NCBI RefSeq assembly: GCF_000516985.1
Contig: NW_006917098.1
Coordinates: 744,001 to 808,000, forward strand
Origin: Pestalotiopsis fici W106-1
Taxonomy: Eukaryota > Ascomycota > Sordariomycetes > Amphisphaeriales > Sporocadaceae
Direction: 5' to 3'
DNA length: 64,000 bases
In this document: in pieces, positions 25,164 through 32,348 of the stretch
Layout: each line of letters opens with the position of its first letter
Numbering within the stretch: position 1 is the first letter of the stretch
The notes under the pieces: generated by a model
Database searches by the model: none
Seen by the model: only the letters and a program-made list of their open reading frames with translations
What the model was told of the DNA's origin: nothing
Translations under genes and position numbers: made by a program

Positions 25164-26820
25164 GTTCCGCGCCAAATCCCCCCTTGCAACGCCATTGCAT
25201 GAAATGGTGGGCTAAATTCATCACACAGGTACGGACGGTCCGGTCTGTGCGAGAGGCCTTGCATCTCGCAGTCTTCACCATTTCAAGCAGTATCAAATTG
25301 AACAACCTGCACCAGCTTTTACCGAGAGGGCCCACCACTATACTTAGTAATATGGCCTTGAGACTCGGTTTCCTCAAATTGGGCACCTTTACAGCCATGA
25401 CACCGAGCGTCATGTCGAGGTACAATATCAACCAAATGTGATGCGTCATTTCCTCCGGTCAACCCACTCCTGTTGGGCTTGTTGTCCCTTCTCTAGCACA
25501 GATCTAACCTAGGTAGCTCCCGACATTGACGGCTGGCCGCCGCGAAAGTCTTCCCGTACCCAAAACGGCTCTTGATGAAACCATGACCCTGCAAGCTACG
25601 GGGTGCAGTAGACGAAGATCTGAGGTATGTCAGATCTCTCGGAGTTGGGATCTCCTTGACGATTCACGATTAGAGCCTACAAAACAACAAACGACATGCC
25701 ACCAACCTACCAGGTTATTGCGTACAACTCCTCTTCCCATTGACAGAGTGACTATAGATGCATACTGGACGATCAAGTCGACTCTTCCATCGCTTGTTCT
25801 CCCAATTCAGTCGCGAGAGTATTGTGAGAATTGACCCTTACTTGGCATTTTTCGCCCAGGTCCCCCGGGGGATTTCGGCAAAGCCGAAACACTATATTGA
25901 CAGATGATTGATATGCCAACAATAGATACGGGAGTCGATCACGATAGTATTTGCACCCCCGGCAACTTCCTTCGTACTTTACTGTGTATAGCGCCAATTC
26001 ATTTCCCAACTCGCATGACCGGGCTTTCCCTTCATGTCCGCAATCACGGACTACCTGTTACAGTCTAGCCAGCTACGTTCGGTCTCGCAACCCAAGTCCC
26101 ATCTGTCAAATCCCATACGCTAAACTAGATCTCATGGCCATGGCTTGGCCCATGTCCTCGTGCTCTCTCTATGCTGTCCCTATTCGCCTACGATCAAGAG
26201 GGCGGTCGCTGAGTTTACAGGCTTTGTGACCTGGGTTTTGTATGCTAAACGCTAGTAGCCCCAAGATGGGCAGAAGTTCTCTTGCTATTCTATCTAATCG
26301 TGCTACACTCCGTCATCGACATCCGCAAGTCTGCGCGTATACAACACACGACCGGGGCCGACTCAAAGCTAGCCGTGCCAGAACCATAGTCTCGGGATGC
26401 ATAATAGTAGGCACGTTTTTAAATACACACGAGCTCTTTAGCCCGATACTTGAAGTTACATATTGCTACATGAAATGTACAGCTGAGTCGTGGATTCTTT
26501 CTGCAAGCACGGATCGAGCCGGGAATGCCGCCCTTTCCTTTCTCCATTGTTATCCTGAAACTTCTTCGCTTGGAAGGCCCCAGCCTCAGGTGCAGATCTA
26601 CAAATTGATTGGATGGCACAAGAGCCCTATCATGAAGCCCGGACCGCGTAGTGGTAGGGCTGATTGATCATGGTTCCTCTCGGGCATGTGAGAGAAGAAC
26701 GCAAATAGGAGGTAATCTCGAATGAGCTGAAAACACGAATCCCACCCCTTGCACGATGACGCACAAAGCGACTCGACAGATTGATCGTACTCTCTGTGGG
26801 ATACCAACATGACATGACGA

Positions 26821-27995
26821 TTATCGCTTGACCCAGGTAGGCATCTTTCTAGCCTTGACGTGACCATGCTTCTTTCTCTCAACAGCTCTGGGATCACGTG
26901 TAATACATCCGGCTGAAGTAATATTAGCATCAATGTTTCTCTACGAGCAAAGGGCTGTGATATGGTCGAGGTGGTGTTTATCCATGCCAGACATGTCAAG
27001 AATGACATGATGGAACGGCTTTCACTCGACCTGTAACGATTCCGGGGACATGGACTCAGCTTACCTCGTCTCAATGGGTTCTTAAGGGCCGGCTCGTGAA
27101 CACACAGGGCCTTGGCTACGGCCAAGGTCATTGCCTCGGCCTGACCAGTCGTGCCACCACCAGTTACGGTGGCCCATACATTGTATTTGTCCATACGCTC
27201 GGTGGATTTGAGAGCCCACATGGCGGACTCGCGATCGTGAACTCTGCCGAATGCGTCGGTCAAAGGCTTGCCATTCACGAATACCTCACCCGTTCCCTCA
27301 ATAACGTAGGCACGAGCGATGGAGCTCTTCCTCTTGCCAACTCCCAGGGCTCGGCCAAACTTGTCCACCGGCAGGAACTTTGGCCTGTTCAGGTAGTGGT
27401 TGACGTCGCGTTTGAATATCGAAATACCCTTGATGACGTCCTCGGGCATGAGATCTGGGTGAATTTGGTTGAGGCGCTTCACCAGACCCAAACATTGTGC
27501 ATAGTCCTTTCCCTTGACCTGCTCACCCGATGCCAAGCGGTACTGTTGCCTCGTTCGCCATGCCACGGGCGTCACCTTGTCTTTGGGCAAGGTCGGCAGG
27601 CGCGCATATTTCCGGGCCAGTTCCTGTACCTCTACAAAACTATCCATAAAGTACGGCTGTCTAGAAAAGTATGAGGGCGAGACGGGCACTGCGCGGGCGA
27701 ACGGCGCGTGTAGAGTGCTCAGCGATGGCGTCAAACGGGAGCTGCCTTCGGGTGCTGCTGAGTTCTGTGCGGCTCCTGCCCCGAGTGCTGCGAATTCTGA
27801 TGCGGACTCAGATGTGTTGTTGTCATTGGTCTCAATGGCCAACTTTGGCGTCGTTGTCGAGATGGCCCTGGAGACGACGGCACCGGCAGGGGTCTGCTTC
27901 TTGGATCTGATGGCGAGTGTCGCGCCCCATTGCGACTTTGCTGTCGGCCGTATGTCCCTAAGACAGCGGGTCGCCGTATACCTCAGCGTCGACAT
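26821..27995 (-). CDS. Mitochondrial small-subunit ribosomal protein uS9m
   Basis: Exons 27995-27065 and 26912-26821 (152-bp intron, GTAAGC donor) encode 340 residues. The N-terminus [20 protein letters not shown] is a typical matrix-targeting presequence. A fungal-specific middle region follows, then the uS9 domain from [21 protein letters not shown] through [20 protein letters not shown]. The last exon gives the basic tail [20 protein letters not shown] and ends PTWVKR; in the uS9 family this tail reaches towards the P-site tRNA. An in-frame upstream ATG at 28091 would add 32 residues; I prefer 27995 because the presequence begins there. Reading through the intron gives a long false C-terminus. 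Divergent from the eEF1B-gamma gene. Confidence 0.95.
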
Positions 27996-28496
27996 GTTGC
28001 GTACTTCTATCGCGATATCGGCATGCCAATGGGCGGCGCGCTGGTGTCTTGTAGGTCGATCGGTCGGACAAGTAGGCACCGGGGGGCTCAAATTGATGCC
28101 CGGGGTGCTGCTACTGAGGAGCTCGGGGGAATCAGTCGTAAATGCGGATCAGGAATACCTTCACCTTCATTGGCAAACAAGCCAACCTAAGCACTTTGAA
28201 GTTTTGTCCGAGCTAAAGGGAATTGATTCGCCGGCACCCGATGTGGCTGAAGCTTGGGACACGGACACACCAGCCACTTTCTTTCCCTGCAGCCAGCCAC
28301 ACTAGGTGGGTAAATAATTGTGGCCTGAGCAGTTACCGTTTGGTGTAATACCCTTGACTCACGAGGCGGGGCGAAATATTTTTTGATGACCCCGCCAAAC
28401 TGGCCAAGATTGTGTGATTTGTATCCATCCTCTCCCAAACATTTGATTGCTTCCCAACCTTTCTTCCCAAAACAACAGAGGTCAATCATCGCCATC
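27996..28496. promoter_or_regulatory. Shared divergent upstream region of uS9m and eEF1B-gamma
   Basis: Only 501 bp separate the two start codons, so both promoters lie here. It contains a perfect TGACTCA at 28355-28361 and a C/T- and A-rich leader just before the eEF1B-gamma ATG. No other gene is seen. Confidence 0.6.
28355..28361. promoter_or_regulatory. TGACTCA, GCN4/CPC1-type bZIP site
   Basis: Exact match to the AP-1-like consensus bound by Gcn4/CPC1 family regulators, 136 bp before the eEF1B-gamma ATG and 360 bp from the uS9m ATG. A 7-bp match can occur by chance; position is the only further support. Confidence 0.4.
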
Positions 28497-30086
28497 ATGT
28501 CGTTCGGAAAGGTCTACACCAAGGAGGTAAGCAAACCAAACAGTCGTCGTCTCGAGCGTTTCTGCTCTCGAGTCTGTTGTTTCTTGTCGTCGTCTACTTT
28601 GCGCAGCTTGCTAACTCGACCTTCTTTGCCAGCGCAACCCCCGCACCACGGCCATCCTCGCTGTTGCGAAGGCCAACGGTCTGGACATTGAGACTGTCGT
28701 TGTCGACACCGTCAAGCCCACCCCCGAGTTCCTCAAGCTCAACCCCCTGTCCAAGGTCCCCGTCTTTGTTGGCACCGATGGCTACGTTCTGACCGAGTCC
28801 ATTGCCATTGCCATCTACCGTAAGACTCTTCCTACTCTTGGGTTCCTTCAGAACTTGATACGGCCCAATCTTTCCCCCCCAATTCGCCAGTGCGAAATGG
28901 TGCTCTACATGATGACCTAGAATATTCTAACAGTTATCCCTATCTGAATCATTTTTTTGAGGATACCGGTTCTATATCTGACACATTTGCCCAATAATGT
29001 TTTTTCCAATCTTTTGCAAAACTTGGCTTTGTTCGTGGGAAAACAGGAGGCTAACAAATTTAATCAGTCACTTCCCAGAATGAGAAGACCACTCTGCTCG
29101 GCAAGACCAAGCAGGACTATGCTTCCATCCTGAAGTGGGCTTCCTTCTTCAACATGGAGGTTCTCCCCAACCTCGGTGCCTGGTACCGCCCCCTGCTTGG
29201 CTGGGACGCCTACAACAAGAAGACCATCGATGACGCCCAGAAGGCCGCCGCCAAGGCCATCGACGTTGTTGAGAAGCACCTGCTGAACAGCACCTTCCTC
29301 GTTGGCGAGCGCATCACTCTCGCTGACCTGTTCGCCGTTGGCATCATCTCCCGCGGCTTCCAGTTCTTCTTCGACAAGGAGTGGCGTGCCAAGAACCCCA
29401 ACGTCTCTCGCTGGTACGAGACCGTCTACAACCAGAAGATCTACTCTGACGTTGCCCACCCCTTCGAGCTCCTCGAGAAGCCCGCTCTCGAGAACAAGCC
29501 CCCCAAGAAGGAGGCTGCCCCCAAGGCCGAGAAGCCCAAGGCTGCTCCCAAGCCCAAGGCTCAGGCCGAGGACGAGGACGATGTCCCTGCTGAGCCCAAG
29601 GCCAAGCACCCCATCGACCTCCTGCCCCGTGCCACCTACCCCCTCGATGAGTGGAAGCGATTCTACTCCAACAATGACGAGGCTGAGTCCATGAAGTACT
29701 TCTGGGAGAAGGTTCCCAAGGACGAGTACACTCTGTGGTCTGTCAAGTACAAGTACGATGACGAGCTCACCAAGACCTTCATGTCCTCCAACCTGATTGG
29801 TGGTTTCTTCACCCGTCTTGAGGCTTCCCGCAAGTTCCTCTTCGGTTGTGCTTCCGTCTACGGACAGGACAACGACTCCATCATCCGTGGTGCTTTCACC
29901 ATCCGTGGTGACGACCACGTCGCTGCTTTCGACGTTGCCCCCGACTGGGAGTCTTACGAGTTCGCCAAGCTCGACCCCGAGAACGCCGAGGACCGCGCCT
30001 ACGTCGAGTCCATGTGGAAATGGGACCAGCCCGTCACTGTCGACGGCAAGGAGTACCCCCACGCCCAGGGCAAGGTCTTCAAATAA
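28497..30086 (+). CDS. Translation elongation factor eEF1B gamma subunit
   Basis: Exons 28497-28526, 28633-28819 and 29068-30086 encode 411 residues, the usual family length. eEF1B-gamma is the scaffold of the complex that exchanges GDP for GTP on eEF1A in the cytosol. Residues 1 to about 75 form the GST-N thioredoxin-like part (MSFGKVYTKERNPRTT, LNPLSKVPVFVG), followed by a GST-C helical domain (FLVGERITLADLFAVG). A Lys/Ala/Pro-rich linker leads to the conserved EF1G domain (HPIDLLPRATYPLDEWKRFY through GKVFK). Codon use is strongly C-ending, as expected of a very highly expressed gene. Intron 1 follows codon 10; intron 2 is long (248 bp) and carries a box C/D snoRNA. The homologue is TEF4/CAM1 in budding yeast. 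Confidence 0.97.
28894..28988 (+). ncRNA. snR38: Intronic box C/D snoRNA, snR38-like (targets LSU rRNA)
   Basis: Within intron 2 of the eEF1B-gamma gene. Box C ATGATGA is at 28909-28915, box D' CTGA at 28944-28947, a degenerate C' (TTGAGGA) at 28957-28963, and box D CTGA at 28978-28981. Flanks AAATG-G-TG (from 28895) and CACATTT (28982-28988) can pair as an external stem. The guide before D', CAGTTATCCCT at 28931-28941, is complementary to AGGGAUAACUG of 25S/28S rRNA in the peptidyl-transferase region. The D'+5 rule places the 2'-O-methyl on the middle G of GGG, equal to yeast G2815 by my alignment to E. coli 2445-2451 numbering. That is the known target of yeast snR38, which also lies in an eEF1B-gamma (TEF4) intron. 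Ends are approximate. The guide before box D was not assigned. Confidence 0.9.
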
Positions 30087-31450
30087 ACTTGTGCAACCTC
30101 TGATGGTGATGTAGTCGAGTTGTCCAAGAAATAATACGTGTTGATGAGTCTTACGGTACTTTCATGAAGGCGGAGCCAAAAAGTTGATAGAGCCAGCAAA
30201 TTGACTGATTTCGACGCTCCCCAATATGATTTGTCTTAATCTAAATCCTTGTGACATTCTAATTATTATTCGTGATCCAACAGTCGTTGAGATTTTGAGG
30301 ACTGAAATAACCATGTTCGGTATATCGATCAATCCATGACCTGTGACGGTAGAGTGTGATACTCGACTGCTTAGTGCTCATATGGCTCTGAGTCCTTCGT
30401 CTGTACTTTACTCAGACAATATGGCAAATAATGCACAGTTCACTAATCTACCACTCACTATACTTGTCTGGCAAATGAACTACAGGATCTGCGCCTTGAT
30501 GAACACGTATACGTGACTGAATATATTTTTGGAATTACCTTTATTCTTTTGTTTCGGAGACGTATATGATTCTTTTTTTTTTCCAACCTCGAAACGCCTC
30601 GAGATAGAATGCTGTTTAGAGATGGGCTAGATTGGAATGAATTCTATTGTTATTCGAGTACAACGCAAGACATCCCAGAATGACAATGTGAAGTAGTATA
30701 TGCCGGCCTCTGTCTAGGGCGAGAAGTTATACAAGCAACAAGAGATCATTACGCCACAAATCATGCCAGGAATCTAGAACACCGTGCGAGCAGCATGCTC
30801 TCTGTTCGACATGTTTCGGATTATATCTTTACCTTTTCTTCTTAGCCCTTTTATTTTTTTTTATTTTTTTTTATTGAGCAATGGGACGATTTATAACATT
30901 GGAAATTCATGGAATGGCGGAACGGCAGTCGTCTTTTGAATGTAGAAAAGGAGTGAGGAGGGAGGAGGGGTCCAAATATGCGCGTTTCTGCATCCTCAAA
31001 GTCTATCTTGTGCGTCCCGATGCATAACGGCCGGAAATCATGCATGACCCGGGAGCATAGTTGCATATAATGACGAATACTCTCTTTGATCCTCGAAAAG
31101 TACGTTGATGGCGGGCGCGTCGAGCAAAGTCGATTCAACAGACACCAGCGGAATATTGTACACACCATCGGTCAGACGTTTGAATACAAAAGGCACGGGA
31201 GTGATACGCGCAGGCAGGACAAGTTTCTCTTTGTTTTTCTGCTTCCTGTCTTCAATGACTCAATAGAAGTGCTTCTCGAGCCGGGTGGCTGTACATATAT
31301 GTATCCCTTGGCCAGATTTCCTCCAGTTGTGTGAAGCGATCCTGATAGATTGGAACAAGGACAATAAATATTTTGTGTGAATAAAAACTCAAACATGTAA
31401 ATCAATCGTGTCTCATTATTACGTGGTCTATATGCACGCTTTCGAGGTAT
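30087..31450. other. Intergenic region between convergent genes
   Basis: About 1.4 kb of AT-rich 3' flanking DNA between eEF1B-gamma and calcineurin B, with T-rich tracts near 30570 and 30850-30875. No coding region or RNA gene is recognised. Confidence 0.5.
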
Positions 31451-32348
31451 CTAGAACTGATCTATATTCTGCAGTCAGTATCATTGTTCCAAAAACACCA
31501 TTGAATCATCATGCCCTGAGCACAGGGGCTAACAATCGCTTTCGATTAGCGAAAAAAGAAAGAACTCACCTAATGTCATGCTCATGCTGACGTCCGTGTT
31601 CTCAACCATCTTGGTAAACTCTTCAAAGCTAATCTTGCCGTCCTTGTCCAGGTCCGCCTCCATGATGGTCTTGTCGACAATCTGCTGGAGCTGCTGGTCC
31701 TTGAGGTTGGAGCCGACCATCATCTTGAGGACAATGAAGAGCTCGCCGTTGCTAATGTAGCCGTCGCGGTCAATGTCGTAGACCTTGAAGGCGAACCGCA
31801 GCTTTTGCTCCTTGTTACCCTTGGAGCTAAAGGCGCTCAGGCCCGACACGAATTCCTGGAAGTCCACATCGCCGCCGCCGTCCTCGTCGAAAATGGCAAT
31901 CATGCGCGTTGCCAGCGGGTTGGATGAGATTTGCGGGAGGGAAAGGAACTCGTCGCGCTCGATCGTGCCAGAGTTATCCTATGGAACGAGAAATATTGGG
32001 TTAGCAAAGAACTGTAGCACTTACGTGCAAATCGCTACTCTCCCCTCTCTCTTTAAAACCTTACAACAAGGAGAGGGAAGCAGTGCAAAAAAGAGGCACA
32101 ATGGAGAAGCATCTTGCAACCTCATATCTTGCTTGCGCACGACAAAGTGGAATATGTAGTACCTTGTCTAGCTTCATGAAGCGCTTTCGCAACCTGTCCA
32201 CCTCCTCGCGGTCGACTATTTATACACTCATGTCAGTTTCCTGTATTCTCAAGGTTCTTTGAACATTCTGCGAGGGTGAGTGGGAGGATATCCTACAATT
32301 CGACCCCTGGACAATATTGTCCAGCACGGCGCTCGTCGAGTTACCCAT
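31451..32348 (-). CDS. Calcineurin regulatory subunit B
   Basis: Exons (minus strand) 32348-32297, 32215-32163, 31978-31570 and 31461-31451 encode 174 residues, the exact usual length. It is the Ca2+-binding partner of calcineurin A, the Ser/Thr phosphatase of the Crz1 stress and morphogenesis pathway. The start [20 protein letters not shown] carries the N-myristoylation signal (Gly2). Four EF hands follow, with loops beginning [39 protein letters not shown] and [13 protein letters not shown], all with intact coordinating positions. The C-terminus is VSMSMTLDQF. The last exon is only 11 nt and supplies Asp-Gln-Phe-stop; without it the frame reads into intron sequence. Introns are 81, 184 and 108 bp with consensus signals. 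Confidence 0.97.

What the first reader, a model, noticed from the sequence alone, without database searches (positions are those of the whole stretch)
28894..28988. snR38-like box C/D snoRNA conserved inside an eEF1B-gamma intron
Intron 2 (28820-29067) is the longest of this gene and carries ordered C, D', C' and D boxes with a possible external stem. The 11-nt guide before D' (CAGTTATCCCT) matches the near-invariant AGGGAUAACUG of large-subunit rRNA, and the D'+5 rule hits the yeast G2815 equivalent. Yeast snR38 has that target and lies in TEF4, also an eEF1B-gamma gene. Host, position and target agree independently, implying this pairing predates the split of yeasts and filamentous ascomycetes. 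Protein-based annotation would miss it.
Basis: partly seen in the sequence, partly recalled or inferred. Interest (0 to 1): 0.78.

Follow-up and report, generated by a model that had tools for sequence, protein, structure and literature searches.

The report
snR38-type guide RNA in eEF1B-gamma intron
An intron of a fungal translation-factor gene carries a small RNA of a known type, expected to guide methylation at the ribosome's catalytic centre, in the same host gene as in baker's yeast, and a sister gene in this genome also seems to carry the same guest as in yeast.

Summary
Intron 2 (28820-29067) of a complete eEF1B-gamma gene carries ordered C, D', C' and D boxes (28909-28981), with the snR38 guide two bases before D'. 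Rfam snoR38 matches with 36.9 bits, below the gathering score of 45, yet best in the 51.7-Mb genome. I read it as an intron-processed box C/D guide for methylation of the yeast 25S G2815 equivalent. Expression and methylation were not testable, and 25S was not found in the assembly. SnR38 homologues are known from Neurospora and Fusarium: a new member of a known kind.

Added: (1) a second snR38-like copy on another contig, 94% identical over 63 bases, similarity confined to the snoRNA; (2) the only SNORD18/U18 match of the genome lies in an eEF1B-alpha intron, its host in S. cerevisiae and Candida albicans. Both pairs support old host-guest linkage. SNORD24 lies in an unrelated gene, so linkage is not universal. 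No other fungal DNA was available to me; the ancestry claim stays inferential.

The parts
28497..28526 (+). eEF1B-gamma exon 1 (ATG at 28497)
   Evidence: spliced translation is an open 411-residue protein
28527..28632 (+). intron 1 (106 nt)
   Evidence: frame check; none of the 7 Rfam matches at E <= 10 in 27000-32000 overlaps it
28633..28819 (+). eEF1B-gamma exon 2
28820..29067 (+). intron 2, host intron (GTAAGA ... GCTAAC ... AATCAG), 248 nt
28901..28988 (+). snR38-type box C/D snoRNA, extent of the Rfam RF00213 match
   Evidence: 36.9 bits, E 0.0019; best of genome
28909..28915 (+). box C (ATGATGA)
   Evidence: identical in copy 2
28931..28941 (+). antisense guide CAGTTATCCCT; C at 28939 is the 5th base before D'
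   Evidence: identical in copy 2
28944..28947 (+). box D' (CTGA)
   Evidence: identical in copy 2
28958..28963 (+). box C'-like (TGAGGA), followed by a segment kept in copy 2 (TACCGGTT)
28978..28981 (+). box D (CTGA)
29050..29055 (+). branch-point consensus GCTAAC; presumed branch A at 29054, 73 bases past the end of box D
   Evidence: sequence; branch use is inferred
29068..30086 (+). eEF1B-gamma exon 3 with stop codon
   Evidence: Pfam EF1G and GST_C

Best explanation
Intron 2 of the eEF1B-gamma gene encodes an snR38-type box C/D snoRNA of about 75-85 nt. After splicing and debranching of the lariat, exonucleases trim the intron back to the box C/D core bound by the snoRNP proteins. The stretch before D' pairs 11 nt with the large-subunit rRNA AGGGAUAACUG, next to the peptidyl-transferase centre, and fibrillarin methylates the 2'-OH of the middle G (yeast 25S G2815 equivalent). 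Shown: boxes, guide, register, intron, host, family match, and a second copy conserved over the snoRNA only. Inferred from general knowledge of the family: expression, processing, pairing with this fungus's own 25S, methylation. The host-guest pairing is more likely than not inherited from the common ancestor of yeasts and filamentous ascomycetes (inferred). The confidence given is for the guide RNA itself; I put the ancestry step at about 0.7.
For: Rfam RF00213 best match of the genome. The guide and its two-base spacing to D' equal the family consensus (alignment). A second copy (94% over window 28909-28971) keeps boxes and guide, while the 10-kb surroundings share no other match better than E 3.6. 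Splice signals and frame. S. cerevisiae snR38 lies in the TEF4 intron (PMC3454408, PMC2705663; passages); PMC8527467 describes an 11-base complementarity of its rRNA-binding region and marks rRNA nucleotide 2815 as its target (passage). N. crassa CD23 is listed as an intronic snR38 homologue with cDNA and northern evidence (PMC2780460; passages). F. graminearum SnR38, a putative intronic snoRNA, falls in the Dbr1 deletion while its lariat accumulates (PMC9606315; passage). Sister pair: the only SNORD18 match at E <= 10 is in the eEF1B-alpha intron, as snR18 is in S. cerevisiae TEF5 and C. albicans EFB1 (PMC2926782; passage); that snR18 is U18 is recalled.
Against: Score below Rfam's gathering score. 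Terminal stem weak. No RNA or methylation data. The 25S target motif was not found in the assembly. RF00213 gives matches at E <= 10 in 9 of 14 control genomes, none over the cut-off; RF00093 does so in 10 of 14, none over. The U18 match too is below its gathering score (34.0 against 41) and needs a 29-base insertion. Yeast TEF4 intron position was not compared. SNORD24 is in the apparent 5' intron of a ThiS-family gene, so snoRNAs do change hosts.
Confidence: 0.93

Rival explanations
1. Chance: the boxes and the 11-mer coincide in the intron and no snoRNA is made.
For: The 11-mer is no commoner than its control genome-wide. The 11-mer plus D' was found in 43 prokaryote or viral loci; 2 of the 43 have a loose C-like word within 45 bases upstream, and one of these, L034 (an Agrobacterium MAG), also has TGAGGA after D', though by eye it reads as coding sequence.
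Against: 2 of 20000 and 1 of 20000 intron shuffles give the boxes or the 11-mer. Best genome-wide family match. A second conserved copy. Host gene family the same as in yeast.
Confidence: 0.02
2. Convergence (concerns the ancestry step only): snR38 moved into the eEF1B-gamma gene independently in yeasts and in this lineage, because translation genes are favoured hosts.
For: snoRNA mobility between hosts is described in PMC3511168 and PMC3596301 (passages). SNORD24 sits in an unrelated gene here. A second snR38-like copy shows that the element has been copied within this lineage.
Against: The same coincidence would be needed twice, since U18 is also in the eEF1B-alpha intron.
Confidence: 0.15
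3. The intron copy is a decayed relic and the second copy (G000:C6:1881885-1881970, minus strand) is the working gene.
For: Two copies exist; one could be dispensable.
Against: The window copy keeps all boxes and scores higher (36.9 against 33.6 bits); its host is a translation-factor gene, expected to be highly expressed (general knowledge). The second copy's host intron is only a consensus guess.
Confidence: 0.05

Closest known systems
S. cerevisiae snR38 in the TEF4 (eEF1B-gamma) intron
   Same: Box C/D snoRNA, same host gene family (PMC3454408, PMC2705663; passages), 11-base complementarity and rRNA target 2815 (PMC8527467; passage)
   Different: Intron position in TEF4 not compared; its sequence was not at hand, only the Rfam consensus. 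PMC3511168 numbers the yeast site Gm2812
Neurospora crassa CD23
   Same: snR38 homologue, D' guide, 11 pairs without mismatch, 26S-Gm2773, 72 nt, intronic, cDNA and northern (PMC2780460; table rows seen)
   Different: Host gene not named in the main text ('elongation factor' and 'EF1B' have 0 occurrences); sequence not available here
Fusarium graminearum SnR38
   Same: Putative intronic snoRNA, level depends on Dbr1 (PMC9606315; passage)
   Different: Host gene not named in the passages that I saw ('eEF1B' and 'tef4' have 0 occurrences)
Rfam RF00213 snoR38
   Same: Full-length match; box C, guide and D' agree with the consensus
   Different: 36.9 bits, below the gathering score of 45; 4 of 7 terminal-stem pairs non-standard
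Rfam RF02403 Afu_328 (A. fumigatus snoRNA)
   Same: Shares box C and AGUUAUCCCU before D'
   Different: 22.7 bits against a gathering score of 70

Membership tests
Box C/D snoRNA | Box C (RUGAUGA) and box D (CUGA) near the ends | tested here: met
   ATGATGA 28909-28915, CTGA 28978-28981
Box C/D snoRNA | Internal D' and C' boxes | tested here: met
   CTGA 28944-28947; TGAGGA 28958-28963, one base off UGAUGA
Box C/D snoRNA | Terminal stem joining C and D | tested here: inconclusive
   4 of 7 model pairs non-standard; fold no better than shuffles; a bulged stem at 28895-28902/28982-28988 can be drawn by hand only
snR38 family | Guide complementary to LSU AGGGAUAACUG directly before D', 5th base facing G2815 | tested here: met
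   CAGTTATCCCT two bases before D', C at 28939; target base as in PMC8527467 (passage); the rRNA letters are recalled
snR38 family | Pairing with this organism's own 25S rRNA | tested here: inconclusive
   recalled 23-nt rRNA motif not found in the assembly with up to 1 mismatch, so the target could not be read
Rfam RF00213 (database inclusion rule) | Score at or above the gathering score of 45 bits | tested here: not met
   36.9 bits; filed here as snR38-type by guide and register, not as an Rfam-threshold member
snR38 family | Expressed small RNA, methylation at the target G | not testable with these tools
   no RNA data held
Yeast TEF4-snR38 host-guest pair | Host is eEF1B-gamma | tested here: met
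   Pfam EF1G, only match in the genome
Yeast TEF4-snR38 host-guest pair | Same intron position as TEF4 | not tested
   no yeast genomic DNA at hand; recalled coordinates are not secure

The most novel reading that the evidence does not exclude
Two subunits of the eEF1B exchange factor (gamma with snR38, alpha with U18) have kept the same intronic guides since the common ancestor of yeasts and filamentous ascomycetes, against the general tendency of snoRNAs to change hosts. This genome also shows a host switch half-way: snR38 sits in its old host and, as a second conserved copy, in a separate and perhaps non-coding unit.
Probability: 0.45. Interest if true: 0.5.

Novelty: new member of a known kind. 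Interest (0 to 1): 0.33.

Why it matters
It adds an instance of a known guide RNA that is expected to modify the ribosome's catalytic centre. With the U18/eEF1B-alpha pair, it gives a clean test of how long a snoRNA can stay in one host gene. PMC3511168 concludes that snoRNA locations drift while expression patterns are kept (passage); two co-retained pairs in one protein complex would be an informative exception, and the second snR38 copy a possible intermediate of host switching.

Tried and rejected
Rfam at gathering score found nothing in the window or around copy 2; lower thresholds were needed. Afu_328 (RF02403) as the better family: rejected, 22.7 bits in the 5-kb scan; in the genome-wide search the window element scores 13.9 bits and the best place is elsewhere at 18.6 bits. 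snosnR61 for copy 2: 27.3 against 33.6 bits, and its consensus guide differs. RF01159 (snoU18) gave two fragments, the better (18.9 bits) at the same place as the full match of the other U18 model, RF00093. rRNA target: pattern search empty, viral scan empty, RF02543 search did not complete. The same-position argument for introns was dropped, because the yeast intron coordinates that I recall came from no call. A second guide before box D was considered and is not supported: the bases just before D differ between the copies.

Print search: ten searches of the PMC library, seen as listings plus passages of nine papers, showed no text that names eEF1B-gamma as snR38 host in a filamentous fungus. 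The fungal snoRNAome paper (Canzler 2018) is not held and supplements could not be read, so the host may well be tabulated there.

Full report
What is there. The window carries a complete eEF1B-gamma gene: exons 28497-28526, 28633-28819 and 29068-30086; spliced translation is an open 411-residue protein. Pfam EF1G matches at 143.6 bits on the third exon, and the genome of 51.7 Mb has one EF1G match. The closest of the 120 listed proteins (of 1920 found) come from Neopestalotiopsis (94% identity) and Pestalotiopsis (93%), so the source is probably a relative of these (inference). Intron 2 (28820-29067) is 248 nt; the 3' splice site at 29067 keeps the frame.

The element. In the intron lie box C (28909-28915), the 11-mer CAGTTATCCCT (28931-28941), D' (28944-28947), a C'-like TGAGGA (28958-28963) and D (28978-28981). 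Rfam snoR38 (RF00213) aligns end to end at 28901-28988 with 36.9 bits (E 0.0019 for 5 kb). That is below the gathering score of 45, and nothing in the window passes gathering. Over the whole genome it is the top match; the second is the copy below (33.6 bits) and the third falls to 23.7 bits. In the control genomes of that search 9 of 14 have a match at E <= 10, none over the cut-off. The terminal stem is poor.

Chance. The 11-mer occurs 10 times in the genome, as often as its reversed control. Of the 10 places, 2 have ATGATGA in the 40 bases upstream and CTGA two bases later, namely this one and copy 2. The loose box pattern is expected 0.2 times per shuffled window, so boxes alone prove little; within the intron it occurred in 2 of 20000 shuffles, and the 11-mer in 1 of 20000. 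As a background, 11-mer plus D' was found in 43 prokaryote or viral loci, 2 of them with a loose C-like word upstream. One of the two, L034, also has a TGAGGA after D'; by eye it reads as coding sequence and I take all 43 as chance. It shows that partial likenesses of this kind do arise in very large collections.

Second copy. G000:C6:1881885-1881970 (minus strand) scores 33.6 bits, below gathering, and matches window 28909-28971 at 94%. The match begins at box C and ends after C'; a D box is present but the bases before it differ, and the 10-kb surroundings share no other match better than E 3.6. It lies between a GMC oxidoreductase gene and a mitochondrial carrier gene. On its own strand between these genes the stop-to-stop frames of 90 aa or more reach at most 115 aa; none was tested for families. 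Consensus splice signals (GTAAGG 70 bases before box C; GCTAATATCAG ending 138 bases after its start) suggest a non-coding host intron; other candidate sites were printed too, so this is a guess from sequence.

Sister host. PMC2705663 states that yeast TEF4 and TEF5 introns encode snR38 and snR18 (passage). I therefore looked at eEF1B-alpha here. The EF1_GNE domain is at two loci, C1 and C11. In the C1 gene, SNORD18 (RF00093) matches at 34.0 bits (E 0.00045 for 1.8 kb; gathering score 41, not reached; the alignment has a 29-base insertion). It lies inside the 314-nt intron 2, contig positions 3996879-3997192, which splits codon 30 in phase 2. It is the only RF00093 match at E <= 10 in the genome, so the C11 paralogue has none; the control genomes ring in 10 of 14 at that E-value, none over the cut-off. 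C. albicans also has snR18 in the EFB1 intron (PMC2926782, passage). Against a general rule, SNORD24 (34.7 bits, gathering score 41 not reached) lies here in the apparent 5' intron of a ThiS-family gene (the intron is read by eye). My recollection, from no call, is that its yeast host is ASC1.

Mechanism. Splicing, debranching and trimming of the lariat would release the snoRNA; F. graminearum SnR38 falls and its lariat accumulates when Dbr1 is removed (PMC9606315, passage). The guide pairs 11 nt with LSU rRNA, and the fifth base before D' (C at 28939) faces the base that in yeast is 2815 (PMC8527467, passage; PMC3511168 lists it as Gm2812). The organism's own 25S could not be read: a recalled motif gave no match in the assembly and the rRNA family search did not complete. 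Expression and methylation are inferred.

Known or new. N. crassa CD23 is listed as an intronic snR38 homologue with an 11-nt D' guide (PMC2780460, passages and part 2 of 6 of the text). The family is therefore already known in filamentous ascomycetes. In ten library searches (listed under tried and rejected) I saw no text naming eEF1B-gamma as its host there, but the main fungal survey (Canzler 2018) is not held and supplements could not be opened. PMC8476143 (passages) names RPL7 and NOG2 as conserved snoRNA-hosting introns in intron-poor fungi; 'TEF4' and 'EFB1' have 0 occurrences in its main text. PMC3511168 (passages) argues that snoRNA locations drift between hosts. The ancestry claim is thus plausible, helped by the U18 pair, and not proven.

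Noticed in passing
G000:C6:1881885-1881970, minus strand (L065:4886-4971): Second snR38-like copy, 33.6 bits, 94% to window 28909-28971, in a gap between a GMC oxidoreductase and a mitochondrial carrier gene; possible non-coding host intron.
   Followed up: partly
G000:C1:3996944-3997038, minus strand (L195:1744-1838): SNORD18/U18-like snoRNA (34.0 bits) inside the longest intron of eEF1B-alpha, the host named for snR18 in S. cerevisiae and C. albicans; only such match in the genome.
   Followed up: yes
G000:C1:3039287-3039361 (L191:1501-1575): SNORD24-like snoRNA (34.7 bits) in the apparent 5' intron of a ThiS-family gene.
   Followed up: partly
window 28959-28971: GAGGATACCGGTT, from within C' onward, is identical in both copies although the bases before box D differ; could be an extra pairing segment or just recent common origin.
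   Followed up: no
window 28918-28929: Self-complementary TAGAATATTCTA between box C and the guide, one base shorter but still with pairing arms in copy 2; a 4-pair hairpin there appears in the predicted fold and centroid.
   Followed up: no
window 26598-28091, minus strand: Gene divergent from eEF1B-gamma (ORF) whose protein looks to me like mitochondrial ribosomal protein uS9 (by eye, not searched).
   Followed up: no
G000 assembly: A recalled 23-nt conserved LSU rRNA motif has no match in the assembly with up to 1 mismatch, so rDNA may be missing or withheld.
   Followed up: partly
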